58,518 nt of DNA from a virus. Where the stretch lies: the IMG/VR virus record IMGVR_UViG_3300047472_000128, positions 1-58,518 of that record. One strand, written 5' to 3'. This document shows positions 1-58,518 of this stretch, piece by piece; the first letter of the stretch is position 1; each line of letters begins with the position of its first letter. A model generated the notes under the pieces. It did not search any database. It was not told the DNA's origin and saw only the letters and a list, made by a program, of their open reading frames with translations. Position numbers and translations under genes: made by a program.

Positions 1-127
1 GGGGAGTTCGGCGAGGGGCGGCATGTCGAGCTGGTCGGCGAGTTTTTCGATGGGGCCGCAGTCGGGGCACTCGATGAACTCCCAGAGTTTGGCGTTCTCG
101 CCGGTCAGCTTGCCGAGGGCGGCGGCG
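1..127. repeat. 127-bp exact direct terminal repeat (left copy)
   Basis: The first 127 bases are identical to 58392-58518. A gene on the minus strand crosses the repeat in the same frame at both ends, so joining the ends restores one open gene. An exact 127-base overlap is the usual signature of a circular contig closed by an assembler with k-mer 127. It need not be a physical phage terminus. The molecule could be circularly permuted or have cohesive ends elsewhere. Confidence 0.95.
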
Positions 128-453
128 AGCCGGTCGTTTTCGTCGGTGATGGTGAAGGTGCGGGCGATGACGGCGTCGAGGGTGCCGAGGACTGTCCAGA
201 GGACCTGTGCGGCGTTGTGTGCGCGGGCTGGGGTGGGGTTGGCCTGGTAGTCGGTGGCGAGGGTGCGTGCTCGGGCGATGGGGTCGGGCCTGGCCGGCTG
301 GGTCATGGTGCGGCGGTGGAAGGGGCAGCCGGGTCCGCAGTCCTGTTCGGTTCGGCCTTCGGCGGCGCTGCGGCCTTTCCAGTTCTGGCAGCAACCGGTG
401 TGGCGGTGTTCGGGGTCTCCGCAGACGGGGAGCAGGGGCGGTGGCTGGGTCAT
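1..453 (-). CDS. Junction-spanning Cys/His-rich protein, N-terminal part
   Basis: ATG at 451-453 overlaps the stop of the replication gene as ATGA and has an AGGAG site about 7 nt upstream. The frame is open to base 1 and continues in frame from 58391 down to 57927, giving about 305 residues across the closed junction. This part has an N-terminal Cys/His segment (CGDPEHRHTGCCQNW), a helical middle section and a CPDC knuckle. Function is unknown. The metal-binding look is visible; a DNA- or protein-binding role is inference. It is probably the first gene after the initiator in a leftward operon. Confidence 0.8.
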   Translation of the reverse strand, partial: MTQPPPLLPVCGDPEHRHTGCCQNWKGRSAAEGRTEQDCGPGCPFHRRTMTQPARPDPIARARTLATDYQANPTPARAHNAAQVLWTVLGTLDAVIARTFTITDENDRLAAALGKLTGENAKLWEFIECPDCGPIEKLADQLDMPPLAELP

Positions 454-1298
454 GTCGGGTCTCCTGTTGTTGTAAGTCCTCGGCGACAGAGCGAGCATTG
501 ACGGAGTTTGCTGTTTTCGAGGCCGTGTTCGCACCGGTTTTTTGATCTTCCTAAGGGCTCGCGCTTACCCCCTAGATTTCCCCCTAGGTTTTGGGGAGCG
601 CCCCCTGTGGAGTGTTCAAGGGATATGGGTACTCCCCTAGGGAGTACTGATTCGGCTTTCAGTACTCCCCTGGGGAGTACTGATCCGTCTTTAAGTACTC
701 CCCTAGGGAGTACTGATTCTTCGCCATGATCGGGCTCTGTAAGCACGTCCGTCGATGGTTTCAGTACTCCCGTGGGGAGTACTGATTCGCCTCGCTTCTT
801 GGCTTCCTCGGCGGCCTTCTTCTTCGCGTAGACGCGGGCGTTCGCGGCCTTCTTCTTCTCCCGCTCGCTCAACACCTTCGATCGCTGGGCGTCCGGGTCA
901 AGGATCTCGGCGCGTTCCTGGATGTCGGGGTGGATGATCAGCCAGTACTCGTTCGTCGTGTCCGGCTCCCCCGGGTGGCGACCCCGGCGCCCCTCATGCG
1001 CAACGAACAGCAGGCCCAGCTCACGAGCGCGACGCAGCGCCTCCCCGACCTTCGCGGGCCCCGTGTCCGCTTCGACGGCGAGCCACGCCAGACCTCGGCG
1101 GGCACCCATGCCGTTCTTGCGGGCCGTGTCGGATAGGACGTGGAGGATGTACCGCTGGCCCTGGGTCAGCCCCTCGACACGCCGCACGAAAGCACGCCAC
1201 GCCCACGGTGCCGCCAAATATTCGCGATACTCCGCGTGAGCAGGCGTTGCAGGTGGGAGATCAGTTTCGTCATCCCAAGGTGCTGCGCTAGAATCCAT
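450..1298 (-). CDS. Replication-initiator-like winged-helix protein with an internal iteron array
   Basis: 282 residues. Residues about 35-120 look like a winged-helix DNA-binding domain (GLTQGQRYILHVL, then a recognition-helix-like stretch and EYWLIIHPD). A basic coiled segment follows (KKKAANARVYAKKKAAEEAKKR). Residues about 170-225 contain repeated SVLPRGVLK-type peptides, which are simply the translation of palindromic DNA iterons at 629-782. The C-terminus carries CEHG...C..C. An initiator gene containing its own binding sites is the arrangement of lambda O, so an origin-binding role is inferred. No polymerase or helicase gene accompanies it. A transcriptional regulator is the main alternative. 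Start ATG 1298 has a rather distant AAGG. Confidence 0.7.
   Translation of the reverse strand: MDSSAAPWDDETDLPPATPAHAEYREYLAAPWAWRAFVRRVEGLTQGQRYILHVLSDTARKNGMGARRGLAWLAVEADTGPAKVGEALRRARELGLLFVAHEGRRGRHPGEPDTTNEYWLIIHPDIQERAEILDPDAQRSKVLSEREKKKAANARVYAKKKAAEEAKKRGESVLPTGVLKPSTDVLTEPDHGEESVLPRGVLKDGSVLPRGVLKAESVLPRGVPISLEHSTGGAPQNLGGNLGGKREPLGRSKNRCEHGLENSKLRQCSLCRRGLTTTGDPT
629..782. repeat. Four palindromic iterons, probable origin of replication
   Basis: Four 19-bp near-perfect palindromes of the form GTACTCCC-NNN-GGGAGTAC lie at 629-647, 662-680, 695-713 and 764-782. Each is followed by CTGAT. Start-to-start spacing is 33, 33 and 69 bp, all multiples of three, so the repeats stay in frame inside the initiator-like gene. 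The 33-bp period is close to three helical turns, as expected for initiator binding on one face. A T-rich stretch (GTTTTTTGATCTT near 537-549) lies nearby. Origin function is inferred. Confidence 0.65.
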
Positions 1299-5096: not shown

Positions 5097-5306
5097 ATGC
5101 AAGCCGTACTCGACACCCTACGAGCCGAACTCGCCGAGAAACAGATCAGCCAACGCGTCCTCGGCGACAGGATCGACCGCACCCAGCAATGGGTACTACA
5201 CCACCTCGCCGGGAACTACGTCCTCAGCATGGAAGACTTCATGCTCTTCTGCGCCGGCATCGACATCGACCCCATCACCACCCTCGCCAAAGCCCTCAAA
5301 CAGTGA
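5097..5306 (+). CDS. Small Cro/XRE-like HTH regulator
   Basis: 69 residues. AELAEKQISQRVLGDRIDRTQQWVLHHLAGN is a helix-turn-helix of the XRE/Cro type, followed by a short helical C-terminus (MEDFMLFCAGIDIDPITTLAKAL). The ATG lies 7 nt after a TACGGT -10 box and has no ribosome site, so the transcript is probably leaderless. It borders a dyad operator, suggesting autoregulation and control of the divergent operon. It could be the lytic/lysogenic switch repressor or a Cro-type early repressor; without an integrase, the latter seems likelier. Confidence 0.75.
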   Translation: MQAVLDTLRAELAEKQISQRVLGDRIDRTQQWVLHHLAGNYVLSMEDFMLFCAGIDIDPITTLAKALKQ

Positions 5307-5331
5307 AAGCCACACCGAAGTGTGGCTTTCA
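5304..5331 (+). terminator. Perfect 12-bp stem-loop directly after the HTH gene
   Basis: Arms TGAAAGCCACAC and GTGTGGCTTTCA with a CGAA tetraloop begin at the stop codon itself. No U-tract follows. The ribosome site of the next gene (GAAGGAG at 5335-5341) comes just after the stem. It may partially terminate, or shield the 3' end of the regulator message, setting the ratio between the regulator and the operon downstream. Confidence 0.6.
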
Positions 5332-5346
5332 CCCGAAGGAGCACCA

Positions 5347-10746: not shown

Positions 10747-11117
10747 GCGCGGTCCCCGACTGGATGGACCGGGCCGCGTGCCGCGGTGTCGACATCAGCG
10801 TGTTCTACCCCGAACCCCCACCAGGGCGGAAGAACCCGCCACGAGGAATCGGGGTAGCAGCCGCCCGCGTCTGCTCCCCGTGCCCCGTCCGTGACGAATG
10901 CCTCGAATGGGCCCTCGGCAAAGAAAAGTTCGGGACATGGGGCGGCACCACCGAACTCGACCGCGACGCCATGCGCAAAGGCATCCGCCGGAAACAGTGC
11001 CCCGTCTGCGGATCAACCCGCCACCAAGACACCTCCGCCGGGCAGGCCTGCATGTCCTGCGGGGTGTCCTGGCCAACCCGTCAACCCCGCGAGAAAGCCC
11101 CCGCACCAGCACGCTGA
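10743..11117 (+). CDS. WhiB-like iron-sulfur regulator with a C-terminal zinc ribbon
   Basis: 124 residues, GTG start. WMDRAACRG with C13, then C44, C47 and C53 in VCSPCPVRDEC, is the four-cysteine Fe-S set of WhiB-like proteins. GTWGG at 64-68 is the family turn. After a basic stretch (MRKGIRRKQ), CPVCG...CMSCG (86-107) adds a four-cysteine ribbon not found in standard WhiB proteins. WhiB-like proteins bind the primary sigma factor and alter promoter choice; phage copies can interfere with host regulators. Its 3' end overlaps the convergent glycosyltransferase gene by 37 bp. Confidence 0.9.
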   Translation: MSAVPDWMDRAACRGVDISVFYPEPPPGRKNPPRGIGVAAARVCSPCPVRDECLEWALGKEKFGTWGGTTELDRDAMRKGIRRKQCPVCGSTRHQDTSAGQACMSCGVSWPTRQPREKAPAPAR

Positions 11118-12148
11118 ACCCGGAACGCCTCAGTCCAAGCCTCCATCCACTTCCACGCATGCCGCTCCACCGTCCACTCCGCTGCGCCGGCCCGCGACCG
11201 TTCCGACACCTCAGCCCGCCAGGTGTCATCGGTCGCGAGCCGTCGCAGCTCCCGATACCACTGCGACGGTTTCCCGGCCAGCACACCCACACCGCTCTCC
11301 TGGTGGAGGCGCTCGTACTCAGGCAGCGGCGACACCACCGGTGGTACACCCACCGCGGCGTATTCGAGCATCTTAAGGTGGGATTTGCTTGTATTAAATC
11401 TAGTAATAGCTAGTGGGGCGATGCCGATCCCGAGGCGGGCGATGTTGACCGCCCAGTCCCCGATCTCGATATTCCCCGTCGACAGCGGCTCACGCGGCAA
11501 GCGGAGCGCGTCCTGAACACCCTCGCCGGGGCCGACGACCTGGAACATGTGGCCCTCGGTCATGAGCCGCTGGACCGCGGTTCCGGTGACCTGAAGATCA
11601 TCCGGGTGGGAGTGGATCGACCCGCCCCACCCGATCACCGGCGAGTCCTGCCGGTCCAACTTCAGGAACAGCTCAGGGACGCAGTTCGGGAGAACCACCC
11701 CGCGGCCGTGCCCGGCGTACCGGCGCAGCAGTGCCGGCGTCGACACCGTAACCAGGGTGGCGCGCTGGCAGGCGAGCGCGGCGGTGGCCCAATCGTGCTG
11801 CGTGTTCGACTGCGGGTGCAGGGCCGCCCATGCCGGGTTGGTGGGGTTGATGGCGTCGAGGTCGTCGTCGATGTCGATGACCACCGCGACGCCCTTCGCT
11901 CGGAGCATGGGGATCGCGTCGGCTACGGGGCCGTGGGTGACGCGCTGCAACACCATGACGTCGACACCTTCGGGGGCTTGGACGTCGATGAGCTTCCCGC
12001 CGTCCATGGTGCCGGTCAGGCCGTGGTGGCGTTGGGCCGGGGGGATGATCTGGATGTGGTGACCTTGTGACTGCAAGTATCTGGCAGCGAACAGCAGTCG
12101 ATACCAGCCACAGCCCTGGAGATCCGCCGGAAAAACCGCAACCCTCAT
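11081..12148 (-). CDS. GT-B type glycosyltransferase
   Basis: 355 residues from ATG 12146-12148 (ATGA overlap). The N-terminal domain has VFPADLQGCGWYRLLFAARYL and VVIDIDDDLDAINPTN. The C-terminal domain has VIGWGGSIHSHPDDL, then LGIGIAPLAITRFNTSKSHLKMLEYAAVGVPPVVS, a GT4-like donor-sugar-binding block. It probably transfers a nucleotide-activated sugar to a phage or host surface acceptor. It ends a six-gene set of sugar and methyl transferases next to minor tail genes, so virion decoration is a reasonable inference. Confidence 0.85.
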   Translation of the reverse strand: MRVAVFPADLQGCGWYRLLFAARYLQSQGHHIQIIPPAQRHHGLTGTMDGGKLIDVQAPEGVDVMVLQRVTHGPVADAIPMLRAKGVAVVIDIDDDLDAINPTNPAWAALHPQSNTQHDWATAALACQRATLVTVSTPALLRRYAGHGRGVVLPNCVPELFLKLDRQDSPVIGWGGSIHSHPDDLQVTGTAVQRLMTEGHMFQVVGPGEGVQDALRLPREPLSTGNIEIGDWAVNIARLGIGIAPLAITRFNTSKSHLKMLEYAAVGVPPVVSPLPEYERLHQESGVGVLAGKPSQWYRELRRLATDDTWRAEVSERSRAGAAEWTVERHAWKWMEAWTEAFRVQRAGAGAFSRG

Positions 12149-12777
12149 GACATCTCCGCGATCCCACGGCCACCGACGTTCCCACCATGGATCCGATACC
12201 GCCACGTCCTCACCGGAACATGCGCGAACATCGCGCCGGCATCCAGCATGCGCAGCAACAGCCCGTAGTCCTCTTCCTGCGCGAACTCCTCCGAGCGGGG
12301 CTTCGGGAACCCACCAGCGGCGATTGCCAGGCCCGTCCGCATCAGGTTCGTCACCGGGATGAAGTTCCCCACGGTGCGGAGGTGATGCGCCTGCTCCGGC
12401 CCGAACGGCACCCCGAACGGGTCACGCAGCACCCCGTTCACCGGTGTGGCGAGGGGATCGCGCCCACCTTCGACGATCATCCCCGGGTAGACGAGGTCCG
12501 CACCGGTCTCCCGCGCAGCCTGCTCGCAGACCTCCAGGTGGTTCGGCAACAGGATGTCGTCATCGTCGAGCCATGCCACCCACTCGGTGGTGATCTGCGA
12601 CAGGGCGACGTTCCGGGCCCAGTGGGCGCCGATGCGGGCCCAGTCCATGATGATGACGATCGCGTCCGGCGGTCGGGTCTGCATGGCTGCGGACTCGACC
12701 GCCTTCGCGAGGCTGTACGACCTGCCGGGTATCGACGGGATCGCCACGGTGATGGTTTCGTCGCCTGGGACCCTCAT
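12145..12777 (-). CDS. GT2-family glycosyltransferase
   Basis: 210 residues from ATG 12775-12777 (ATGA overlap with the BldC-like gene). GT-A landmarks are ITVAIPSIPGRSYSLAKAVESAAMQTRPPDAIV at the start and AWLDDDDILLPNHLEV, whose DDD coordinates the divalent metal and nucleotide-sugar. EEFAQEEDYGLLLRML carries the ED acid/base pair typical of the family. Soluble, no membrane segment. Co-transcribed with the GT-B enzyme below it. Confidence 0.85.
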   Translation of the reverse strand: MRVPGDETITVAIPSIPGRSYSLAKAVESAAMQTRPPDAIVIIMDWARIGAHWARNVALSQITTEWVAWLDDDDILLPNHLEVCEQAARETGADLVYPGMIVEGGRDPLATPVNGVLRDPFGVPFGPEQAHHLRTVGNFIPVTNLMRTGLAIAAGGFPKPRSEEFAQEEDYGLLLRMLDAGAMFAHVPVRTWRYRIHGGNVGGRGIAEMS

Positions 12778-12959
12778 GACTCGCCTGCCAGCAGCCGACG
12801 GATCTCGGACTCGCGGTATCGGCGGTGACCGCCCGGGGTGCGGAGCGAGCTCACCCGGCCAGCCTGGGCCCACCGGGTCACGGTCTTCGGGTCGACCCGG
12901 AACATGGCCGCGACCTCGGCGGGGGTGAGCAGGTCTTCGTGTTCAGGTACGTCTCTCAT
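12774..12959 (-). CDS. BldC-like MerR-type HTH regulator
   Basis: 61 residues: a short N-terminus, then LLTPAEVAAMFRVDPKTVTR, WAQAG and TPGGHRRYRESEIRRLL. From memory this is close to residue-for-residue with Streptomyces BldC, which binds DNA cooperatively as head-to-tail oligomers and delays development. Lacks any effector domain. In this position, between glycosyltransferase genes, it may control the cassette or act on host promoters. Upstream it has a 15-bp spacer containing GGGTACGTTTCACCCC, possibly a binding site. Confidence 0.85.
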   Translation of the reverse strand: MRDVPEHEDLLTPAEVAAMFRVDPKTVTRWAQAGRVSSLRTPGGHRRYRESEIRRLLAGES

Positions 12960-12974
12960 GGGGTGAAACGTACC

Positions 12975-13565
12975 CTATGGGGCGGCATCTCCGCGATCAG
13001 GTAGACCAGACGTATTCCCGGAATGTATGTTCCAGCGCCATGTTACTAGAGGTAGGTGGACGATCTTCGCGCCCAACTCGATACACCGCAGCACCAGCCG
13101 GAAATCCTCACCACCGTTATGCAGACGCTCCGGCAACGGCTCGATCCGAGCTTCCTGCGCGAGCGCGGTCCGAACCACCACAGTCGAAGTCGTCTCCACA
13201 GGATTCGCCGGATCGAAGGGCTTCCCGAAGTTCGTCGGGAACGGATCAAACCCGTTCGTCCCCTCAAACCACGAGTAGCAGAAATCCGCCCCAGTCTCCT
13301 CCAGATGCCCGATCAGCCGCTCAAGGTGCTGAGGCAGGAACTCATCATCCGAGTCGAGGAACGCCACCCACGGCGTAAGCACGCCCTCCAACGCCCGCTG
13401 CCGAGTAGCCGCCGCACCCTCACGCCCCGTGTCGACCGCGACCGACACCGCAGCCGGAGACCACGTTTGCGCAGTCACCGACTGCATCGCCCGCAGCAGC
13501 ATCCCGTTGTTCAGCCGGGCCTGATGCGCGGGAATCGCCACCGTCACATCATTGGGAAAGAGCAC
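12975..13565 (-). CDS. GT2-family glycosyltransferase
   Basis: About 196 residues from GTG 13563-13565, which overlaps the epimerase stop by 17 nt. Later starts would cut into the first strand. It has VTVAIPAHQARLNNGMLLRAMQSVTAQTW, AFLDSDDEFLPQHLERL (DSDD metal site) and GGEDFRLVLRCIELG (ED pair). It resembles the 12145 enzyme in length and layout, suggesting an old duplication. Start not certain. Confidence 0.8.
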   Translation of the reverse strand: MLFPNDVTVAIPAHQARLNNGMLLRAMQSVTAQTWSPAAVSVAVDTGREGAAATRQRALEGVLTPWVAFLDSDDEFLPQHLERLIGHLEETGADFCYSWFEGTNGFDPFPTNFGKPFDPANPVETTSTVVVRTALAQEARIEPLPERLHNGGEDFRLVLRCIELGAKIVHLPLVTWRWNIHSGNTSGLPDRGDAAP

Positions 13566-14457
13566 GGCGCACCCCGTCTTCCAGGCTGATTTTCGGCGTG
13601 TAGATGGTGTGGAAGATGCTGGGATCACCGACGCGATTGAGGACACCCGTGGGCTTGCCGACCAGGTAGGTCACGTCATCCGAGTCGAGGCGGCCACCGG
13701 CGGCAAGGTTGACTACGACCGCGAGTTCGCCCATTTCCGTGCCGATCCCTGTGCATAGGTTCACGGGAGCCTGGTAGTCCTGGTCCACGACGGCGAGCGC
13801 ACCCGCCACCACGTCGGAAATGTGAATCCAGTCTCGGCGCTGTCCGCGTGGACCCCATACACTGAGGTCCCCTTCGCGGGCTCGCTTAACGATGGAAGGG
13901 AACGGGTAATCCAGGGATTGATCTTCCCCGTATCCGGAAAATGGCCGAACGATATGAACGTTCAACCCCTCGTCCTGCGCGTTGTACGCCAGCTTCTCCC
14001 CCGCCATCTTCGCGAACCCGTAATCCGCATCAGGCTTCCCCGCATGGTCGCGGGGCATCAGCGCCTCGGGCAACCGATGAGTCCCGTAGTTCCGCATGAG
14101 CAGCTTCCGGGATTGGTCGCTGCCATCCTGGAATCCGACCGGGTAGACCGCCGACGACGAGAAGTACAGCACCCGCTTCTGTCGGGTGCGTACCGCCCAT
14201 CCGAACATGGCTGCGTCCAGTTCGAGGTTCTTCGCGAGCGCGCGACGGTCGGAGTCGATCGCGGCGCGGCCCCCGACGTGGAAAGCGCAGTGGATCACGA
14301 GATCGTAGGCAGTGAAATGGCGTTCGGCTGCGAAGAGGATGCGGGCGTCCGATCCGTCGGCGATGTCCCAACCTTCCACATCCCAACCGCGCGAAATCAG
14401 CTCGGCGCTGATGTGGCGGCCCACAAATCCGGCCGAGCCGGTGACGAGGGCTCTCAC
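13549..14457 (-). CDS. NAD-dependent epimerase/dehydratase (extended SDR)
   Basis: 302 residues, GTG 14455-14457 overlapping the methyltransferase stop as GTGA. TGSAGFVGRHISAEL is the glycine-rich NAD site, LYFSSSAVYP holds the catalytic serine, and YGFAK is the YxxxK pair. RPFSGYGEDQS and RDWIHISDVVAGAL are the usual sugar-binding segments. Members epimerise, dehydrate or reduce nucleotide-sugars. It probably supplies a modified sugar to the neighbouring glycosyltransferases. Confidence 0.88.
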   Translation of the reverse strand: MRALVTGSAGFVGRHISAELISRGWDVEGWDIADGSDARILFAAERHFTAYDLVIHCAFHVGGRAAIDSDRRALAKNLELDAAMFGWAVRTRQKRVLYFSSSAVYPVGFQDGSDQSRKLLMRNYGTHRLPEALMPRDHAGKPDADYGFAKMAGEKLAYNAQDEGLNVHIVRPFSGYGEDQSLDYPFPSIVKRAREGDLSVWGPRGQRRDWIHISDVVAGALAVVDQDYQAPVNLCTGIGTEMGELAVVVNLAAGGRLDSDDVTYLVGKPTGVLNRVGDPSIFHTIYTPKISLEDGVRRALSQ

Positions 14458-15017
14458 ATCGCCCCCCAGATGCCCCAGCGGTACGGGAAGCGCTCCGAGC
14501 GCGGGTCTACGTCCATGTAGACGTATGTGGTGAACCCGGCCTCTTCCAACATGCCCGTCACGTCCGGTGCCGACCATGCCCAAACGTGCTCGGGGTTGTC
14601 GTCGCCCCAGGCGTCGATCGGGGTGGACAGCAGCAGCCGGTCTGTGACCTGGCGGATGCCGCGTAGGACCGCGTCGGGGTCGCCCAGGTGTTCGAGGGTT
14701 TCGCAGTTGATGAAGATGTCCGCACGCGGGCCGCCCTTCATCAACTCCAGCGCTTCCTCGATCGGGCCGACGAGGTCTATGTGATCGCCGTGCGCGTAGT
14801 CGCCGAGGGTGACGTGATGCGCGCCCAAGCTGCGGGCGATCATCCCGTCGCCGCAGGACAGGTCGACAGCGGTGAACTCGCCGAGGTCGCGGACCATCCA
14901 CTTACCGAGGGCCTGCGTGGCGGCGACCCGCAGCAGGTGATCAGGGAAGTGGTGGTGCTCGTGAGGCTTCGGGTACGTGGTCGCGAGATCAGGCATCTCA
15001 CGGAGCCGGCTACGCAT
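14454..15017 (-). CDS. Class I SAM-dependent methyltransferase
   Basis: 187 residues. FTAVDLSCGDGMIARSLG is motif I binding S-adenosylmethionine, and INCETLEHLGDPDAVLRGIRQV is motif IV and the following helix. WSAPDVTGMLEEAGFTTYVY ends the fold. The genetic context points to methylation of a sugar or carboxyl group rather than DNA. It overlaps the upstream gene by 8 nt. Confidence 0.82.
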   Translation of the reverse strand: MRSRLREMPDLATTYPKPHEHHHFPDHLLRVAATQALGKWMVRDLGEFTAVDLSCGDGMIARSLGAHHVTLGDYAHGDHIDLVGPIEEALELMKGGPRADIFINCETLEHLGDPDAVLRGIRQVTDRLLLSTPIDAWGDDNPEHVWAWSAPDVTGMLEEAGFTTYVYMDVDPRSERFPYRWGIWGAM

Positions 15018-15738
15018 GGGTGCTCCTCAGGGTTCGGATCTTCTCGGCGTCGCCGGGGAGTTGGTTGAGCATGTACTCCTGGTAGACACCGAAGTCGTAT
15101 TCGGCGATGGCTTGCGCGTTGACGCGAGCATACCCGTCGTCCATCGCGCTCTTCCCCGCCGCCGGGTGCATGTGCTCGACGATCACGTCAGGCATGTACC
15201 GGATGCAGTCGGTGGCCTCACCCAACGCTTTCCACATGTTGTCCACGTACAGGTGATGGAACTTGGGCCACACCATGTAACCCAGTGCGCGGATGATGTC
15301 CGAGGTCATCGCGATCTGGGTGGGAATGTTCGGGCCCTGGAACAAGTCGTTGCCGTACACCATCCCGCTGCCGAGCCGCTTCAGTTCCGCCACATACGCG
15401 TGGTCCCACGGCACCGCCGACGGACGCGGCCGGTGGTCGTCGCCGCAGAACCCGATCGCGAACACGCTCCCGATCCCGGCCTGGTATTCGGCGATCACGT
15501 TGAGGGACTGGACCATGCCCGGGATGCGCTCATCGACCGGGCCGAGCCGCACGCCGAGGATGCGTATGTCGCCGATCTTCTCGACCGACGCCGCGTAGTC
15601 CAACCAGGTTTCGTCGTCGTCGTCCACGACGAACATCATGGTCGCGATCGTGGTGTCAGCTTCGACGACAGCGGCATACATCTCCTCCACCGCTTGCGGT
15701 CGCCCTCGGGATGGGACGATCATCAACAGTTCAGTCAT
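15010..15738 (-). CDS. Glycosyltransferase-like protein (GT-A fold)
   Basis: 242 residues. LLMIVPSRGRPQAVEEMYAAVV starts the fold; MMFVVDDDDETWLDY gives the acidic metal site; FAIGFCGDDHRPRP and HHLYVDNMWKALGEA are further recognisable blocks of phage GT2-like proteins. Likely the first gene of the decoration cassette, 12 nt after the minor tail gene ends. Acceptor unknown. Confidence 0.75.
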   Translation of the reverse strand: MTELLMIVPSRGRPQAVEEMYAAVVEADTTIATMMFVVDDDDETWLDYAASVEKIGDIRILGVRLGPVDERIPGMVQSLNVIAEYQAGIGSVFAIGFCGDDHRPRPSAVPWDHAYVAELKRLGSGMVYGNDLFQGPNIPTQIAMTSDIIRALGYMVWPKFHHLYVDNMWKALGEATDCIRYMPDVIVEHMHPAAGKSAMDDGYARVNAQAIAEYDFGVYQEYMLNQLPGDAEKIRTLRSTHA

Positions 15739-24514: not shown

Positions 24515-25308
24515 CAGGTACCCGTCCTACGCCATGGTGCCGGGCCGTCCATGTCGTACACGGTCGGTACCGAGTCGTAGTTGTGCGGGTTGTATCGGCG
24601 CAGGAACCGGTCAGTCAACGTCAGACCGGTAAGGCCCGCGTTCATGACCTGCGTGAAGTCCGGGAAGTTGATCGACACATCAGCCCGGTTGACCGTCGTC
24701 GCCCACCTCGGGAACTCGCACCCCAACCCCAGGCAGTGCTTCATGTAGTCGATCGCGAGCTCACCGACTGCGAACCGGCCCGCTGCGGGCACCACCTCCC
24801 CGACAGTGAGGGTGACCGACCACGTGTTGTCCTCGGTATCCGCCAACGACAGGTCTTGGCAGGTCGGCCACGCGAACCCGTCCGTCCGAACCAGGTACCG
24901 GTTGTCGTCGATGCGGTACGAACCGGTCGGCATCACCGACCCGTCCAGCCTCACCTCGATGATCTGCTGAGCCGGCACAGGGAGAAGTGCCTCTTGCAGG
25001 TTCGTGCATGAGCACGTGTCCGGGCATGACCCGCACGTGATGTTGTACCAGGCCCCCGCGTACAGGACGGGTTGCGGGTAGGTGCCGAACTGCCACCACG
25101 AACTCGTGAACGGCCACGAATCGCCGTAGCACGACCGGCGGCACGGGCGGATGGTGGTGGTGCACAGCCCGAACTGCTGCCGGGATCCTTTCCACAGGAT
25201 CTCCGTGGCCGCTTCCAATGCGAACCCCGATACGGCCTCGCTCCCCGTGGGGAGCGAGGCGCACCAGATCGGTTCCCACGGCTCGCATGGGCCGAAGTCT
25301 GTGGTCAT
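24514..25308 (-). CDS. Head-to-tail adaptor, Cys-rich
   Basis: 264 residues. CEPWEPIWCASLPTGSEAVSGFALEAATEILWKGSRQQFG opens it: the helix after a CxxC-type start is similar to adaptor proteins of actinobacteriophages. WYNITCGSCPDTCSCTNLQEALLPVPAQQIIEVRLDGSVM and LVRTDGFAWPTCQDLSL follow. About 13 cysteines. ATG 25306-25308 has no ribosome site; TACGCT lies 6 nt before it, so it may have its own leaderless promoter. Confidence 0.6.
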   Translation of the reverse strand: MTTDFGPCEPWEPIWCASLPTGSEAVSGFALEAATEILWKGSRQQFGLCTTTIRPCRRSCYGDSWPFTSSWWQFGTYPQPVLYAGAWYNITCGSCPDTCSCTNLQEALLPVPAQQIIEVRLDGSVMPTGSYRIDDNRYLVRTDGFAWPTCQDLSLADTEDNTWSVTLTVGEVVPAAGRFAVGELAIDYMKHCLGLGCEFPRWATTVNRADVSINFPDFTQVMNAGLTGLTLTDRFLRRYNPHNYDSVPTVYDMDGPAPWRRTGT

Positions 25309-30279: not shown

Positions 30280-33200
30280 TCAGGATACGGCAGAACAACC
30301 CCAGTCGTCACCAGCACCCGCAGTCTCCGCAGGCTGCTCCCGAGGTCGCTTCTTCGGGCGCGGCTTCGGCAGTCGCGGCGGGGTGTCCGCTGCCGCCACC
30401 TCGATACCCCGTTCGGCCAACGCCTCGATCAGCGCGGGCAGCGGCTCCACGTACGCGCTTGCCTGTGCCATACCGTCCGAGGATGTGGCCTCGTAGATGT
30501 TCCCCGAGTGGTAAACCTCTTGGATCACCTGGTCAGGGTCGTTAGGCGAGTACACGTACTCGACCTGCATGGGCTGCTCGTCGGCGCCAACGCTCACCCC
30601 GCCTATCCACCCCTGCGCGAGTTTCCGCGCATATTCGAGCCCGCTGGGATCGTCGAGGTCGATCATGCCCCAACCGTGGATCTCACGGCCCATCCGGGCA
30701 ATCTCGGTGATCAGACCAACCGTGACGACCTCGGGCACACCCCCGTGCATTCCTGTGTGCTTGTCCCAGTTGAACGGGATCGGCGGCGTGCGCCACGTCC
30801 ACGACCCGAGCATCTGCACCCGGCGGCCCGTCGACACACCCTCCGTGTGCATCAGGGTGTGGAAGTGCGCACCGGGGACAGCGGTGGCCATCTCCTCTTC
30901 GTAGGCGAGTGCGGCACCCAACTGCTCGGGGCTCGGCATGTCTTCGCCAGCGGCGGCGGTAACGATGTGGCCTTCGCCGGGCCATTTCCCGGTAGCGCGG
31001 TGGTGCATCGTCGCGCACAGGCCTTCAGGGTCGGCCACACCCGGTTCGTCACGCAGCCGCTTCACGCACCGTCGGAACCCGCCAGGCTGCCCAAGACGGA
31101 GCTTGCCGGCATTGCCCGCAGCCCACCCCTGGACATCGAAGTCATTGCCGCTGTCGCCGCCGGTAAGCGGGTAGTCGGTGACCTCGTCACCCATCGCGAC
31201 CCGTAGCCGGTCAAACGTGACCGGGCCCAGCTTCTCGACGAGGGCGGGGATTTCCCCGAGGTCATCGCTGTACTTAAAAGTAATATGAGGCACCCACGGT
31301 GCGTGGTTGTCGGGCGGGGTCATCAGCTTCCCGACGCGACCGCTCACACCCGCATGGAGGTCGGCGAGCGGTTGCCCGCCCACGCCCATGACCAGCGCCG
31401 TCTCACGGTCCTCGGCGTGCGGGTTGAACGCGTTGACCGCGAAACCGTCCCCCTCGATCGGAGGTGTTGTCGCAGCGTAACCGGCCACCACGTCGTAAAC
31501 AGCGCCCCGAATGTCCTCAGGAATGTCCGCAGCCTCACCGAGGTACATCACCGTCAGGTGCAGCTCCTCAGCCGGCTCGCCACCATCGACCGCGAGTCGG
31601 TCGACATGCTCAGCGGACGGAACCAGGGCGATCATCGCACCAGTGTGACCGGACCCGGCGGCAGCGACCTCGGGTGCCGAGGACGCCTTCGCAGCAAGGT
31701 CATTGAGCTGCTTCAGGAACCGGCGCATGTCCGAGGAATCCATGTCGGCCGTGCCCAACTCGTTGGAGGGGAACGCCCACCCGGCGGCACTGGAGGAAGG
31801 GCGCACCGCAAGCTTGAAACCCCAATCGGCTTCCGAGCCGTCGCGGCCCCACACCTGGTATGCCAAGTCGCCCCACTCGCCAGCAGGAATTACCCCTTCG
31901 CCAATCATGTCGTCGGCCACCAGGTCCCGGTTCCACGCTTCGAGTTCAGCTCGTCGCTTCTCCCCGGCGGCGTCGAGGCGCCCCTCATCGCGAGCGTCGT
32001 CTAGGCGGTCCAGTTCGGCGAACTTCTTACGCAGCTCAACCGACCGAGCCTTCGCCGCAGTGTTTTCAGCCTCCAGCGACGCGACGACCCGCTCGACGTC
32101 GCCAGCCCGGAGCTTCAGCGTGCCGCCGAGGTTCGCCGCCGACCACTTCTCCTCGTCGCCACCTCCGACGATACCGAGGCGCACTTCGGGACCGCCGAGG
32201 GTGGAGATCGCCGCGCCGACGGGCACGGCATCCGACGTGCCGTTGACGTCGAACGCGCGCGATCCACGCAACTCCTCGCCGTCGCCGAGCTGGATCCGCT
32301 TCGCAAGTCCGAGTTTGTCGCCAGGGAGGCTGGGGGCCTTCCCGCCACCACCGATCTTGTCGGCGAACTGCCCATCGCCATCGCGTGGGTGCTGGCCCTC
32401 CACGAAATGGATGACCGCAGCGGAGATCTCTACATCCACGTCGTCCTCATCGTCTTCGTACTGGGCTTCGTCGATCAGCCGCTCTGCTTCCCTCAGGGTT
32501 TCGAGGAGCGATTCGGTTTCATCGCCATCAAGCCAAATGTCGAAGTTCCCTTTGCCTTGGTCAACCATGTAAATGTTGATCAGGCCGTCTTTGTCGTACC
32601 CGACCCCGATATCCCCGTTACGGCCCGTACCGAGCCCGTCGAGCAACTGCCGTTCGTCCTCGCCCTCGGCATCTTCCGGGTCCGCGTCCTCCCACATACC
32701 CTGCACGCGTTCGATACGATCCGCAAGCTCAGTCCACGCCGACGAATCCGACCCATCCAGGATCACCCGCGCTTCATCGCGGTCCTCCGAATAGATGGAC
32801 AGCGCCGAATCGCCATTCTCATGGACCGTCAACCAGCCATACACCGGATCGGCGCTCCCGCTGGTCTGATCCCCCCACTCCAACTCCTCCTCGATCGGCC
32901 CATACAAATCCGCCACCGACGCCAGCACGCCAAGGTCCTCCCCAGCCTGCTCCGCGAACTTGCCCTCACCATCACGCGGATGCTCAGCTTCATCGAACAC
33001 GGCGGCAACGACAGGCACTTCAGCCCTCCGGCGGATATTCACCGCAGTCCACGCACAACGGCACTGGATTGTTTCATCGGCTTCCCCCAATGGATCAGCG
33101 GGGAAATCGAGCAGCGCATCGCCGACAACGAACTTGTCGTTCAGGTCCACCGTTTGCCCATGCGCAGCGATGTGCGTCGGGCGCGTCCGCCCGTCCGTGG

Positions 33201-34035
33201 GGAACGTTGCTTCCCACTGCTTGTCCATGTCCAGACCGAGCGCACGCGCCTGCGTGATCGATCCGCCGTTCGCTGCGCTCGCCACCTCGGTCCGGGCGGT
33301 CTTCACCGCGCGGGTCGCCGCGAACCCCGCAGCCTGCTCGACGCGGGCCGCGAGTTCCTTGATCCCGTCACCGGCCTTGATACCCTCAACGAGCTGCTCC
33401 CGGATCTCCTCCCACGTGATATCCCCCACGTTTTTCAGCCGGTTCGACGCAGCAGCCATCCACGCAGCGGCTGGTTCGTCAAGCGGGGCAATGCTGTTGT
33501 CCAGGTCATAAGCCAGGATGATCCGCACGTCACGTTCGGCGCGTTCTCTTTCGGCGCGGCGGCTTTCGGGTGCCGGCTCGGCATCGGGAGGAATACCGGG
33601 GGCGCCCAGCTCCGAGGGTTCGCGCGGTTCGGCCTCTGGCGTTGGGCCTTGCCCTGCTTCCTCCGGTTCCACGGGAAGCTCAGCCCGGGTGAGGAGATTT
33701 TCGATCTCCTCCCTCCGCGCCGGGTCCTCCACGGACTCCAACAGCCGGTCGATCACCTGCTGACCGGCGAGGGTATCGAGGAACATCTCACCGGAGCCGA
33801 GGTACACGCGGGTGAGCTCAGGAATGAGGACTTCGGCGGTGTACGCGTTCCACAGGGTGAAGATCGGGGCGAAGGTCGCGTCGGTGACCGTGGACGGGAT
33901 CGGTTCGGCGAGGATCGCAGCGACAGCGGCGGCTACCGCTGCGGTGATACCTGCGTTGATGAGGGCGTCGAACTGCTCTTCGGCGGCGACGATCTCGGGT
34001 TCGGTGTACCCGTGGACCGGTTCGGGTTGGGTCAT
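30280..34035 (-). CDS. MuF-like head polyprotein with 2H phosphoesterase and protease-like domains
   Basis: 1251 residues. 170-335: MuF-type minor head domain (THIAAHGQTVDLNDKFV ... ETIQCRCAW). EHPRDGEGKFAE (351-362) and QHPRDGDGQFAD (548-559) are repeated linkers marking domain borders; between and after them lie acidic domains of unknown fold. About 795-955: 2H phosphoesterase with HLT (826-828) and HIT (917-919). About 968-1022: small Cys/basic module. About 1058-1165: RTPPIPFNWD, HGGVPEVVTVGLI, GWGMIDL and GGVSVGA, like the start of a prohead protease. Combining an RNA-end-processing fold with head proteins is unusual. Packaged delivery is possible (inference). Confidence 0.75.
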   Translation of the reverse strand: MTQPEPVHGYTEPEIVAAEEQFDALINAGITAAVAAAVAAILAEPIPSTVTDATFAPIFTLWNAYTAEVLIPELTRVYLGSGEMFLDTLAGQQVIDRLLESVEDPARREEIENLLTRAELPVEPEEAGQGPTPEAEPREPSELGAPGIPPDAEPAPESRRAERERAERDVRIILAYDLDNSIAPLDEPAAAWMAAASNRLKNVGDITWEEIREQLVEGIKAGDGIKELAARVEQAAGFAATRAVKTARTEVASAANGGSITQARALGLDMDKQWEATFPTDGRTRPTHIAAHGQTVDLNDKFVVGDALLDFPADPLGEADETIQCRCAWTAVNIRRRAEVPVVAAVFDEAEHPRDGEGKFAEQAGEDLGVLASVADLYGPIEEELEWGDQTSGSADPVYGWLTVHENGDSALSIYSEDRDEARVILDGSDSSAWTELADRIERVQGMWEDADPEDAEGEDERQLLDGLGTGRNGDIGVGYDKDGLINIYMVDQGKGNFDIWLDGDETESLLETLREAERLIDEAQYEDDEDDVDVEISAAVIHFVEGQHPRDGDGQFADKIGGGGKAPSLPGDKLGLAKRIQLGDGEELRGSRAFDVNGTSDAVPVGAAISTLGGPEVRLGIVGGGDEEKWSAANLGGTLKLRAGDVERVVASLEAENTAAKARSVELRKKFAELDRLDDARDEGRLDAAGEKRRAELEAWNRDLVADDMIGEGVIPAGEWGDLAYQVWGRDGSEADWGFKLAVRPSSSAAGWAFPSNELGTADMDSSDMRRFLKQLNDLAAKASSAPEVAAAGSGHTGAMIALVPSAEHVDRLAVDGGEPAEELHLTVMYLGEAADIPEDIRGAVYDVVAGYAATTPPIEGDGFAVNAFNPHAEDRETALVMGVGGQPLADLHAGVSGRVGKLMTPPDNHAPWVPHITFKYSDDLGEIPALVEKLGPVTFDRLRVAMGDEVTDYPLTGGDSGNDFDVQGWAAGNAGKLRLGQPGGFRRCVKRLRDEPGVADPEGLCATMHHRATGKWPGEGHIVTAAAGEDMPSPEQLGAALAYEEEMATAVPGAHFHTLMHTEGVSTGRRVQMLGSWTWRTPPIPFNWDKHTGMHGGVPEVVTVGLITEIARMGREIHGWGMIDLDDPSGLEYARKLAQGWIGGVSVGADEQPMQVEYVYSPNDPDQVIQEVYHSGNIYEATSSDGMAQASAYVEPLPALIEALAERGIEVAAADTPPRLPKPRPKKRPREQPAETAGAGDDWGCSAVS

Positions 34036-44793: not shown

Positions 44794-45468
44794 TCACACG
44801 GTCACCGCCAGATGGGCGAGCAGGTGTTCCCCGATGTACTTGGTGAAGTTCGGCGGGATCGACTCGGCCAGCTCGGACCGGGTCATCCAATCGATGCCCA
44901 TGACCTCGCGGGCTAGCGCGATCGGTGAACAGTTGCCCGCCACGGAGATCACGCTTCCCGGCACCCAGTGCCCCGCTGCCGACGCGGGGATCAGGTGGCG
45001 CGGGTGGTCGGGTGCCGCGATCGGGATCGACGATTCGAAGAGCCTGTGCCGGTAGAGTGCCGCGCCGAACATAGCCCCGCAGAGCAGGAGCCCGTTCGCC
45101 CCGAAGAGGTCTCCGTGCTCGGCAAGCCCGGACCCTTGTACGTTTTCGATGACCCACGGGCGCCCCCACTCGGTGAGTAGGTTCCTAGTAACGGCCACGA
45201 GGTCAGGGTAAGAGTCGGCGAGGCCCGGTCTGCATCCGGACATGGCCGAGTATTTCTGACAAGGCGGCGAGCCGTGGGCCGCCGCGAACTGGTCCATGAA
45301 GGCGTGATCAGCCATCAACTCCAGTGCGTCGCCTTGAATGAACTCATCTCCTGCATACCGTGGCTGCGGGTTGATATCGACTCCCGTCACGTGGAACCCA
45401 GCGAGCTGGTAGCCACGGCCGGCCCCGCCGGCCCCGCCGAAGAAGTCGACCATGCGGGGTTTGGTCAC
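44794..45468 (-). CDS. Cytosine-5 DNA methyltransferase
   Basis: 224 residues from GTG 45466-45468 (GTGA overlap). MVDFFGGAGGAGRGYQLAGF is motif I, VTGVDINP motif II, GSPPCQKYSAMSG motif IV with the catalytic PCQ, and VIENVQG motif VI. ALYRHRLFESS is motif VIII. It is short for the family: a target-recognition region of only about 50 residues remains before the closing motifs. It probably protects phage DNA against host restriction. No partner nuclease is present. Confidence 0.82.
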   Translation of the reverse strand: MTKPRMVDFFGGAGGAGRGYQLAGFHVTGVDINPQPRYAGDEFIQGDALELMADHAFMDQFAAAHGSPPCQKYSAMSGCRPGLADSYPDLVAVTRNLLTEWGRPWVIENVQGSGLAEHGDLFGANGLLLCGAMFGAALYRHRLFESSIPIAAPDHPRHLIPASAAGHWVPGSVISVAGNCSPIALAREVMGIDWMTRSELAESIPPNFTKYIGEHLLAHLAVTV

Positions 45469-45748
45469 TGCTCGCTCGTTTCGGTTCGGCATCCGGCGGT
45501 GTAGGTGACAGTCCAGGTGTGGTACCGGTCCCAGTATCCTTTGGTGCGGGTGGCGGTGAGCACTTGCATACGCTTGTTGGCGTGGGGGTAGACGACGCGT
45601 ACCGTCCGGTTGGCCCGCCAAACGGCAACCCATCTGGGGGTGACCAGCGGGCGCGCATGACTTCGGACACGGTGACGCAGGGGGTGGATGGGCCGGGTTT
45701 CGGGTGGGTGATGATCCGATGCCGGTCAAGGAAATGGACAAGGCTCAT
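45465..45748 (-). pseudogene. Gene with a -1 frameshift at a C5 tract
   Basis: ATG 45748 (ATGA overlap) begins MSLVHFLDRHRIITH ... SEVMRARWSP. After the CCCCC run at 45640-45636 the sensible text moves to the -1 frame: RWVAVWRANRTVRVVYP, then KGYWDRYHTWTVTYTAGC, ending at TGA 45465, which overlaps the methylase start. A 94-residue product needs either programmed slippage or repair of a one-base error. The start-frame text beyond the run is Pro/Arg-rich shadow. Function unknown. Confidence 0.55.
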
Positions 45749-46800: not shown

Positions 46801-46845
46801 TTGACACATGGCAGTGTTGACTCTATCAACACTGCCATGTAAGAT
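46801..46845 (+). promoter_or_regulatory. Strong promoter overlaid by a 35-bp perfect palindrome
   Basis: TTGACT (46817-46822), 17 bp, TAAGAT (46840-46845). Arms of 15 bp, ACATGGCAGTGTTGA (46806-46820) and its exact complement (46826-46840), flank CTCTA. The core TGTTGA-N5-TCAACA equals the operator at 46305. A second TTGACA at 46801 with TATCAA at 46824 may be an overlapping promoter. The dyad lies upstream of the start point, so it acts as DNA, not as an RNA hairpin. Confidence 0.8.
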
Positions 46846-47841: not shown

Positions 47842-48006
47842 ATGAGCAAGCAGCCCAAGTCCGAGCCGCTCGGCGACCGCACGCAGCGCCCCCACGACCC
47901 GGACGGTTGGCGGGTCGAACGTGACCACACCGAACCGACCGGCATCCAGCAGGACGACCGCAACGGCTGGCCCGCCGGTGACCCGAACCGGGGGCGCAGG
48001 GCATGA
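47842..48006 (+). CDS. Small polar protein
   Basis: 54 residues from ATG 47842 after GAGGAG. Very hydrophilic: SKQPKSEPLGDRTQRPHDPD then WRVERDHTEPTGIQQDDRNG. Probably disordered. Overlaps the sigma factor start as ATGA; being that small and coupled it might be an anti-sigma-like partner, but nothing in the sequence shows it. Confidence 0.55.
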   Translation: MSKQPKSEPLGDRTQRPHDPDGWRVERDHTEPTGIQQDDRNGWPAGDPNRGRRA

Positions 48007-48578
48007 CCACCACCGTTGACACCGAAGCGCCGGCGGTTGTGACCCGGGCGCAGGCTGGCGACCCTGCCGCGATCGCCGAGCTGTATGAGCAGTACTGGGG
48101 GTTGGTGTTCCGGTTCTGTTATCGGCGGACGAGTAACACGCACATGGCGGAGGATCTGGCCACGGACGTGTTCGTTCGCCTGATCAAAAAGGTCGACACG
48201 TTCGAATGGCGGGGGACTGCGCTCGGGGCGTGGCTTCTCATCGTGGCCCGGAACCTCATCGCTGACCGGTATAAGTCGAAGCCGTATCAGAAAGAAGTCC
48301 ATTCCGGGGTGGGTGTCGACTACGCCAGCGAATACCCGGCAGTCGGCCCCAGCCCGGAAGACGTGGCGACCGATCTCATCACCCATGAGACGGTCATCCG
48401 CATGATGGACCAGCTCAGCCCAGATCAGCGGGAGGTGCTGCGTCTGCGGTTCCTGTGTGAGATGTCGATGGAGGAAGCCGCCGCCGCCATGGGCAAAGAG
48501 GTCAGCTCCATCAAGGCGTTGCAGTTCCGGGCGGTACGGTCGATGCGGCGCCTGTTCCCGGACGGGAGCCCTCTGTGA
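48003..48578 (+). CDS. ECF-type RNA polymerase sigma factor
   Basis: 191 residues. Region 2: AIAELYEQYWGLVFRFCYRRTSNTHMAEDLATDVFVRLIKKVDTFEWRG (about 24-75), including the -10-recognising helix. Region 4: MMDQLSPDQREVLRLRFLCEMSMEEAAAAMGKEVSSIKALQFRAVRSMRRLF (about 130-185). Linker lacks extra domains. Redirects RNA polymerase, probably to a set of phage promoters, such as late genes. No anti-sigma protein recognised nearby. Confidence 0.9.
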   Translation: MTTTVDTEAPAVVTRAQAGDPAAIAELYEQYWGLVFRFCYRRTSNTHMAEDLATDVFVRLIKKVDTFEWRGTALGAWLLIVARNLIADRYKSKPYQKEVHSGVGVDYASEYPAVGPSPEDVATDLITHETVIRMMDQLSPDQREVLRLRFLCEMSMEEAAAAMGKEVSSIKALQFRAVRSMRRLFPDGSPL

Positions 48579-48883: not shown

Positions 48884-49225
48884 TCAGGCGGTCACGGGGG
48901 AGCCGGCGGCGACCCAGGCTTCGCGGGCGGCGCGGGAGACGCGGCCGGATGCCTTGAGGGGGGTGCCCTGCGCGGTGTGCCAGGCCCGGATGGTGGTGTC
49001 GCGGGCCTTGTCCTCGGCGGACGGGGAACGCTTGGCGCGGGCGCCCTTGCCGAGCTTCCGGCCGGCGTCGAGGTACGGGGACACGGCGGCCATGAAGAGC
49101 TGGAAGTTGATGTCGCCGAGGTCGACTTCGGTCGCGACGCTGTCGATGACGATGGTGTGCGGCTTGGCGTCGGGGGTGCGGTCGAGGTCGTCGACTCGGA
49201 TGGGCTGGGCGTTGATGACGGCCAT
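48884..49225 (-). CDS. Lsr2-like nucleoid-associated protein
   Basis: 113 residues, AAAGGA site. N-terminal oligomerisation domain: VATEVDLGDINFQLFMAAVSPYLDAGRKLG (about 30-59), matching Lsr2 EIDLS...LRxxLxPYVxAGRRVG. C-terminal DNA-binding domain: ARDTTIRAWHTAQGTPLKASGRVSRAAREAWVAAG (about 74-108). The RGR minor-groove hook is SGR here. Lsr2 silences AT-rich, foreign DNA; a phage copy could compete with host Lsr2 or organise phage DNA. Confidence 0.82.
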   Translation of the reverse strand: MAVINAQPIRVDDLDRTPDAKPHTIVIDSVATEVDLGDINFQLFMAAVSPYLDAGRKLGKGARAKRSPSAEDKARDTTIRAWHTAQGTPLKASGRVSRAAREAWVAAGSPVTA

Positions 49226-49237
49226 GGTGGTCCTTTG

Positions 49238-49573
49238 CTATGTGGTGGGGCGATTGGTTTCGCCCATCATAGCGGTGCCATCCTGTTTTTGTTGCGTGAG
49301 GGTGGTGAGGTGCTTGTTCGTTTCGGTTTGCTGGTCGCGGATCATTGCCAGCATTTCGGTGGTGTTGCCGTTGACGTGGTTCTTCACGGCCTGGATTTCG
49401 CGGGTCTGTTCCTGGATTTTCGCTACGCCGAGGGTGGCGATGACGGGGATCACAACGAGCGACACCACGGTCAAGATGACCGTGGTGTCGACTTTCATCG
49501 CGGCGAGGACCGTCACGCACCCCACCACGAAGCAGGCAACGAAGGTTAGGGCTATGACAACAGCGCGGTCCAC
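49238..49573 (-). CDS. Holin-like membrane protein
   Basis: 111 residues from GTG 49571-49573 (GAGAGG upstream); ATG 49630 would add 19 residues. Two membrane helices at about 4-26 (AVVIALTFVACFVVGCVTVLAAM) and 31-50 (VILTVVSLVVIPVIATLGVA). A polar helix follows (KIQEQTREIQAVKNHVNGNTTEMLAMIRDQQTETNKHL). Charged C-terminus and closeness to the endolysin gene fit a class II holin. Confidence 0.65.
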   Translation of the reverse strand: MDRAVVIALTFVACFVVGCVTVLAAMKVDTTVILTVVSLVVIPVIATLGVAKIQEQTREIQAVKNHVNGNTTEMLAMIRDQQTETNKHLTTLTQQKQDGTAMMGETNRPTT

Positions 49574-57927: not shown

Positions 57928-58518
57928 CACTGCTGCCTCCATCCGGGGCCGAGGTTGGCGTGGACTTTGCCGCAGGGGACGCATTGCGCTTTTCGGGTGT
58001 AGCCCTCGTCGAGGGACACGGACACCCAGCTTGTGGAGCCGCAGGCTGGGCAACGGTGCTCGGCGTCGGCGGACGGTTCGCCGGTCCGGGCGGCGTTGCC
58101 GGTGTTGACGATGCCGCCGGTGGCGAGTTTGGGCCAGGTGCGGGGGTTGGGGTGTGCGTTGGTGGAGTGGTCGCCTTCGTGGCCCTTGGCGAGGAAGCAG
58201 GTGAGGGTGTTGCTGCTGCCATGCCATCCGTCTGCCCTGCACCATTCGACGGGCGCCGTGACGATCGGGTAGCCGGGCCCGGTGGGGGGTTGGTTGTCGT
58301 GGTCGCCGGGGTGGCCTTCGGGGAGGAAGCAGGCGAGTCGGGCGAGGTGGGGTTCGGCGACGGGGAAGCCGGGGCAGAGCTTCGGGGGGGTGGGGAGTTC
58401 GGCGAGGGGCGGCATGTCGAGCTGGTCGGCGAGTTTTTCGATGGGGCCGCAGTCGGGGCACTCGATGAACTCCCAGAGTTTGGCGTTCTCGCCGGTCAGC
58501 TTGCCGAGGGCGGCGGCG
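57927..58518 (-). CDS. Junction-spanning Cys/His-rich protein, C-terminal part
   Basis: Continues in frame from the gene beginning at 453 after closure of the circle. It holds two copies of C-x4-GH-x-G-x-H (CFLPEGHPGDH and CFLAKGHEGDH) and a final ribbon, CPACGSTSW ... CVPCGKVH. Across the junction the protein has about 10 cysteines in three groups. The internal ATG at 58415 is not the likely start because the better-supported start lies across the junction. Confidence 0.8.
   Translation of the reverse strand, partial: AAALGKLTGENAKLWEFIECPDCGPIEKLADQLDMPPLAELPTPPKLCPGFPVAEPHLARLACFLPEGHPGDHDNQPPTGPGYPIVTAPVEWCRADGWHGSSNTLTCFLAKGHEGDHSTNAHPNPRTWPKLATGGIVNTGNAARTGEPSADAEHRCPACGSTSWVSVSLDEGYTRKAQCVPCGKVHANLGPGWRQQ
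58392..58518. repeat. 127-bp exact direct terminal repeat (right copy)
   Basis: Same sequence as 1-127. The non-redundant genome unit is therefore 1-58391. It lies inside the coding sequence of the junction-spanning zinc-ribbon gene. Confidence 0.95.

What the first reader, a model, noticed from the sequence alone, without database searches (positions are those of the whole stretch)
450..1298. Replication initiator gene carrying its own palindromic iterons in frame
Four 19-bp palindromes of GTACTCCC-N3-GGGAGTAC occupy 629-782 with 33/33/69-bp spacing, inside a winged-helix protein gene. Because spacings are multiples of three, the DNA sites appear as SVLPRGVLK repeats in the protein. The genome has no polymerase, helicase or primase gene, so initiator-driven recruitment of the host replisome (lambda O style) is the best reading. 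I know of no described actinobacteriophage origin of this kind.
Basis: partly seen in the sequence, partly recalled or inferred. Interest (0 to 1): 0.75.

Follow-up and report, generated by a model that had tools for sequence, protein, structure and literature searches.

The report
Phage replication gene containing its origin
A phage, probably infecting actinobacteria, carries four identical-armed DNA palindromes inside one gene; this looks like a start-of-replication gene that contains its own origin, as in phage lambda, and other actinobacterial phages turn out to share the layout, so it is a new example of a known design.

Summary
Four perfect GTACTCCC-N3-GGGAGTAC palindromes lie at 629, 662, 695 and 764, in frame in a 282-aa ORF on the minus strand (450-1298), and nowhere else in a complete 58.4-kb circular genome. 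The repeats exceed what protein and codon usage explain: the gene ranks first of 45 in the window (z about 15; next 3.3). Rare codons (GTA 4.4%, GGA 6.3%) are fixed in every arm. No polymerase, DnaB-type helicase, helicase loader or primase-polymerase was found. The best reading is a replication initiator with in-gene binding sites, that is, an origin inside the gene.

That design is not unique. Phage lambda O scores z 7.6 on the same test. Annotated initiator genes of Gordonia, Mycobacterium and Corynebacterium phages carry in-gene iterons too: rank 1 in five of seven genomes, rank 2 in a sixth. One related prophage (L064) has three perfect 17-bp palindromes every 63 bp. The protein itself is an orphan. 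The winged helix is only weakly supported, no strong AT-rich tract or helicase loader is seen, and nothing is tested at the bench. The GC-skew turning point at 629 is suggestive only: reversed polarity, not shared by relatives.

The parts
450..1298 (-). 282-aa ORF, putative replication initiator carrying the palindromes
   Evidence: rank 1 of 45 window genes for in-gene DNA repeats
930..1172 (-). aa 43-123, probable winged-helix DNA-binding domain (HTH_36-like, weak support)
   Evidence: 38% identity over 48 aa to the HTH_36 domain of L076, which Pfam recognises there at 4e-8; no Pfam hit for the query itself
789..875 (-). aa 142-170, Lys/Arg/Ala-rich linker before the repeats
   Evidence: translation
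764..782 (.). palindromic iteron 1 in gene order, GTACTCCCGTGGGGAGTAC (arms extend to 761-785)
695..713 (.). palindromic iteron 2 in gene order, GTACTCCCCTAGGGAGTAC (arms extend to 694-714)
662..680 (.). palindromic iteron 3 in gene order, GTACTCCCCTGGGGAGTAC (arms extend to 659-683)
629..647 (.). palindromic iteron 4 in gene order, GTACTCCCCTAGGGAGTAC
   Evidence: coincides with the maximum of detrended cumulative GC skew
568..587 (.). two direct CCCCCTAG repeats 12 bp apart (568-575, 580-587), resembling the palindrome core; role unknown
   Evidence: sequence
486..533 (-). aa 256-271, C-x-H...C-x2-C motif near the C terminus, possible zinc knuckle
   Evidence: translation; similar Cys/His C termini in EdmundFerry gp51 and prophiT48-1 gp31

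Best explanation
ORF 450-1298 encodes a phage replication initiator whose binding sites, the four 19-bp palindromes, lie inside its own gene and form the phage origin. Proposed mechanism: the N-terminal DNA-binding domain binds the palindromes as a dimer, the array nucleates a complex that opens DNA in or beside the repeat region, and host helicase and polymerase are recruited because the phage has none of its own. Shown: the sites, their DNA-level conservation beyond coding needs, their confinement to this gene, the absence of recognisable replisome genes, and the shared layout with lambda O and with annotated actinophage initiators. Inferred: protein-DNA binding, origin activity, melting position and host recruitment.
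For: Four perfect sites, all in one gene. Repeat excess over synonymous-codon shuffles is 0/200, and the gene is first of 45. Non-preferred codons are fixed in all arms: GTA x8, GGA x4. Third-position GC drops from 0.78 to 0.48 in the repeat-bearing half. Blind test on seven actinophage genomes: the annotated or homologous initiator is the top gene by the same score in five and second in one; lambda O, an established case, scores z 7.6. L064, homologous to 'RepA-like replication initiator' genes, has three in-frame 17-bp palindromes every 63 bp. Replisome gene families are absent, while a RecT/YqaJ recombination pair is present; the comparison phages likewise carry RecT, most with an exonuclease. 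The skew maximum is at 629.
Against: The protein has no detectable homologue in any collection searched. The fold is weakly supported. There is no strongly AT-rich tract: the lowest 40-bp GC nearby is 0.45, against the very AT-rich lambda tract. No helicase loader was found. The skew polarity is opposite to the usual origin (a maximum, not a minimum), and relatives show no consistent coincidence. EdmundFerry's annotated initiator ranks only eighth, and Miko repA, experimentally a replicon, shows no in-gene repeats, so the signature is neither required nor proof. The comparison initiators are annotations, mostly untested.
Confidence: 0.7

Rival explanations
1. The palindromes are operators: the protein (or another dimeric regulator) is a transcription factor that binds inside its own gene to repress it or the genes downstream.
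For: Dimeric regulators bind palindromes. A near-identical site pair, GTACTCCG..CGGAGTAC, sits just upstream of what reads as a ribbon-helix-helix antitoxin gene in a Blastocatellia contig, as an operator would. The next minus-strand gene overlaps the stop codon, 175-330 bp beyond the sites.
Against: Four sites in the 3' half of a coding region and no further site anywhere in the genome. In comparison genomes the genes with such arrays are the annotated initiators. The promoter scan finds nothing on the minus strand here, though it covers only sigma-70-type promoters.
Confidence: 0.14
2. The array is a partition or incompatibility site (centromere-like), or a packaging site, bound by another phage protein.
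For: Repeat arrays are typical of parS and inc sites; mycobacteriophage parS repeats lie beside repA. The skew extremum at 629 would also fit a terminus or a packaging start.
Against: No ParA/ParB-like gene was recognised in the proteins scanned. The location inside a putative DNA-binding protein gene is unexplained.
Confidence: 0.07
3. The palindromes act as RNA hairpins in the mRNA (attenuation, stability, or an RNA primer or regulator).
For: The 201-nt transcript folds far better than shuffles, -96 kcal/mol, z -8.6.
Against: Any perfect palindrome gives this, so it does not discriminate. The arms are identical between copies, so no compensatory change can be counted. No T-run follows the hairpins.
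Confidence: 0.04
4. A selfish or accidental in-frame palindromic repeat, duplicated within the gene, with no function.
For: The spacing is in multiples of three, so copies could be tolerated as coding repeats. Tandem duplication could explain identical arms.
Against: Arms are invariant while spacers and the central three bases vary. The repeats are not dispersed in this genome; none of the 48 paired-site viral hits has this arm sequence, and only 11 stretches in viral contigs hold a single exact copy.
Confidence: 0.05

Closest known systems
Phage lambda O gene and ori-lambda
   Same: Four 18-bp iterons with partial dyad symmetry (ATCCCTCAAAACGAGGGA) inside the initiator gene, after the DNA-binding half; in-gene repeat excess z 7.6 by the same test.
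   Different: No sequence homology was detected. Lambda spacing is 20/24/23 bp against 33/33/69 here. Lambda has a strong AT-rich tract beside the iterons and a helicase-loader gene (P) downstream; neither was found here.
Actinophage 'RepA-like replication initiator' / 'replication initiation protein' genes (L064, Walrus gp69, Twister6 gp63, prophiT48-1 gp31, Mask gp84, Eyre gp57, Bran gp48)
   Same: DNA-binding N-terminal half, in-gene iterons near the middle in many, Cys/His C terminus in several; RecT in the genomes examined; L064 has perfect in-frame palindromes.
   Different: No detectable sequence homology to the query. Most have 11-12-bp direct iterons rather than long perfect palindromes.
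Jace gp38 replication initiation protein
   Same: Iterons inside an annotated initiator gene; top gene in its genome for in-gene repeats.
   Different: Seven 11-bp direct repeats, not in frame; different protein.
Mycobacteriophage Miko RepA replicon (Wetzel et al. 2020, PMC7157519)
   Same: A RepA-like protein whose gene plus short flanks suffices for replication; the authors suggest the origin may lie upstream of or within repA.
   Different: No in-gene repeats; extrachromosomal prophage replicon with parABS.

Membership tests
Initiator genes with in-gene iterons (lambda O-like layout) | Several repeated sites inside the initiator gene, beyond coding needs | tested here: met
   lambda O positive control
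Initiator genes with in-gene iterons (lambda O-like layout) | Protein binds those sites and the segment acts as an origin | not testable with these tools
   needs gel shift and plasmid replication assay
Initiator genes with in-gene iterons (lambda O-like layout) | AT-rich unwinding tract beside the iterons | tested here: inconclusive
   40-bp GC minima 0.45-0.47 against a genome of about 0.65; much weaker than lambda
Lambda O protein family | Pfam or PHROG match, or homology to known O proteins | tested here: not met
   no relevant match
Lambda O protein family | Helicase-loader partner (P or DnaC type) | tested here: not met
   for IstB/DnaC; a P-type loader was not searched with its own model
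Actinophage RepA-like replication initiators | Sequence homology to the annotated family | tested here: not met
   no tblastn match although the phages collection holds these genomes
Actinophage RepA-like replication initiators | N-terminal winged-helix/HTH domain | tested here: inconclusive
   weak match to an HTH_36 domain; model of low confidence; no Pfam hit
Dispersed palindromic repeats (REP/RPE type) | Copies scattered in the genome, in many genes or between genes | tested here: not met
   four sites, all in one gene

The most novel reading that the evidence does not exclude
An orphan initiator family, unrelated in sequence to any known one, that has independently evolved an in-gene origin made of long perfect palindromes; with the actinophage survey, it would show that initiator genes of several unrelated families converge on carrying their own origin, so that in-gene repeat excess can be used to find phage origins.
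Probability: 0.45. Interest if true: 0.5.

Novelty: new member of a known kind. Interest (0 to 1): 0.38.

Why it matters
If true, it gives a compact candidate origin (under 900 bp) for a phage with no recognisable replication enzymes. It also points to a simple test, DNA repeats inside a gene beyond what its protein requires, that ranked the initiator first or second in six of seven actinophage genomes. Few actinobacteriophage origins have been mapped (my own knowledge, not checked), so this would make them directly testable and could yield new plasmid vectors for actinobacteria.

Tried and rejected
Homologues of the protein: none by tblastn in phages or plasmids, or by scans of viral and genome contigs, or in 40 related virus records. 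PDB by sequence: none. AlphaFold on one sequence: unusable, so no fold search was run. Relaxed pair pattern GTACT-N9-AGTAC in viral contigs: 48 hits, mostly Ser/Thr-repeat proteins whose codons create the pattern by chance; a few are initiator-like genes with in-gene arrays. Genome scan for paired palindromes: one hit, upstream of what reads as an antitoxin gene. GC skew: extremum at 629, but relatives do not place initiators at extrema, so I give it little weight. RNA folding does not discriminate. Phages sharing the terminase: no comparable array in those fetched.

Full report
What is there. The window is a whole virus record of 58,518 bases with an exact 127-bp terminal direct repeat, so it is very probably a complete, circular 58,391-bp genome. 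An ORF of 282 codons runs on the minus strand from 1298 to 450. It holds four perfect palindromes GTACTCCC-N3-GGGAGTAC at 629, 662, 695 and 764, spaced 33/33/69 bp. With up to three mismatches there is no fifth site, and shuffled genomes give 0.22 on average. Two copies extend to arms of 11 and 12 bp.

Is it more than coding repeats? Yes. When synonymous codons are shuffled within the gene, so that protein and codon usage stay fixed, repeated 8-mer pairs fall from 82 to about 9 and never reach 82 in 200 trials. Among 45 window genes this one has by far the largest excess (z 15.8; next 3.3). The arms fix codons that this genome avoids: GTA (4.4% of Val codons) eight times and GGA (6.3% of Gly codons) four times, while the three central bases and the spacers vary. 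Third-position GC is 0.78 in the N-terminal part and 0.48 in the repeat-bearing part. This is the pattern of a conserved DNA site inside a gene; recent duplication could contribute, but would not explain why the spacers differ and the arms do not.

What the protein is. It has no significant match in Pfam or PHROGs, and none in phages or plasmids, in viral or genome contigs, in 40 related virus records, or in PDB sequences. Residues 51-98 align at 38% identity with the HTH_36 domain of another phage's initiator-like protein, E 0.001 for that single comparison. The AlphaFold model from one sequence is not usable. So the winged helix is plausible, not shown. A Lys/Arg-rich linker precedes the repeats and a C-x-H...C-x2-C motif ends the protein.

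Genome context. Family scans of about 40 proteins and six-frame searches found no DnaB-type helicase, family A polymerase, DnaC/IstB-type loader, Helicase_C or Prim-Pol gene. A YqaJ exonuclease and a RecT annealing protein are present. The phage presumably relies on the host replisome, which fits an initiator-only strategy.

Comparison. Genomes sharing the RecT type led to actinophage genes annotated as 'replication initiation protein' or 'RepA-like replication initiator'. Many carry iterons inside the gene, usually near its middle: Jace seven 11-bp repeats, prophiT48-1, Mask and Eyre seven or eight 9-mer cores mostly at multiples of 12 bp, Bran eight. L064, a homologue of the Walrus and M. 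abscessus prophage initiators, has three perfect GAACCGTTAAACGGTTC palindromes every 63 bp, in frame, the closest parallel to the query. As a blind test, ORFs of at least 150 aa in seven genomes were ranked by in-gene repeat excess: the annotated initiator (in Bran and Delian the homologous gene, listed as hypothetical) is first in Eyre, Bran, prophiCCUG48898T-1, Jace and prophiT48-1, second in Delian, and eighth in EdmundFerry. Lambda O, whose annotated iterons lie inside the gene, scores z 7.6. Miko repA, shown experimentally to be a replicon (PMC7157519), scores 0.7, so in-gene iterons are common but not required.

Mechanism. I conclude, at about 0.7, that 450-1298 is a replication initiator gene containing the origin: a dimer of the protein would bind each palindrome, and the array would load host replication proteins. 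Binding, melting and recruitment are inferred. Weak points are the absence of a strong AT-rich tract and of a loader gene. The cumulative GC skew turns at 629, the first base of a palindrome, without a change of gene direction there; but it is a maximum, where the usual polarity predicts a minimum at an origin, and in seven comparison genomes initiators do not sit consistently at either extremum.

Rivals. Operators for a regulator (0.14) are the main alternative: a closely similar site pair lies upstream of what reads as a ribbon-helix-helix antitoxin gene in a Blastocatellia contig. Here, however, all sites are in the 3' half of a coding region. Partition or packaging sites, RNA hairpins and neutral repeats are less likely.

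Novelty. The layout is that of lambda O, and it is common in annotated actinophage initiators, so this is a new member of a known kind. What may be new is the orphan protein with long perfect palindromes, and the wider observation that in-gene repeat excess points to initiators across unrelated actinophage families. I found no description of that in the papers searched, but the library is partial.

Noticed in passing
window 1-127 and 58392-58518: Exact 127-bp terminal direct repeat; the record is very probably a complete circular genome of 58,391 bp.
   Followed up: yes
L064:11431-12387, L065:9359-10363, L066:14314-15447, L076:11504-12574, L078:16053-17033, L079:14859-15992: Initiator or initiator-like genes of phages and prophages, mostly actinobacterial, carry in-gene iterons, palindromic in L064. 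In-gene repeat excess ranks the initiator first or second in six of seven genomes.
   Followed up: partly
window 30280-34035 (-): A 1251-aa ORF joins a Mu F-like head protein domain and a 2'-5' RNA ligase-like domain.
   Followed up: no
window 48003-48578 (+) and 48884-49225 (-): The phage carries an ECF-type sigma factor and an Lsr2-like protein.
   Followed up: no
window 11081-15738: A block with glycosyltransferase-like and methyltransferase-like genes.
   Followed up: no
window 44794-45741 (-): By eye, this ORF contains cytosine-5 DNA methyltransferase-like motifs (FFGGAGG, SPPCQ); Pfam gave no match.
   Followed up: no
window 46806-46840, 49460-49490, 5303-5332, 25235-25260: Single long hairpins (12- to 15-bp arms) elsewhere in the genome, unlike the array; some may be terminators.
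   Followed up: no
L199:1728-1775: Two GTACTCCG..CGGAGTAC-type palindromes just upstream of what reads as a ribbon-helix-helix antitoxin gene in a Blastocatellia contig, an operator-like use of a similar site.
   Followed up: partly
L063, L047, L053, L057: Viral ORFs with in-gene GTACT..AGTAC arrays read as peptide repeats (for example STKDLSTSTS); several look like replication-organiser proteins.
   Followed up: partly
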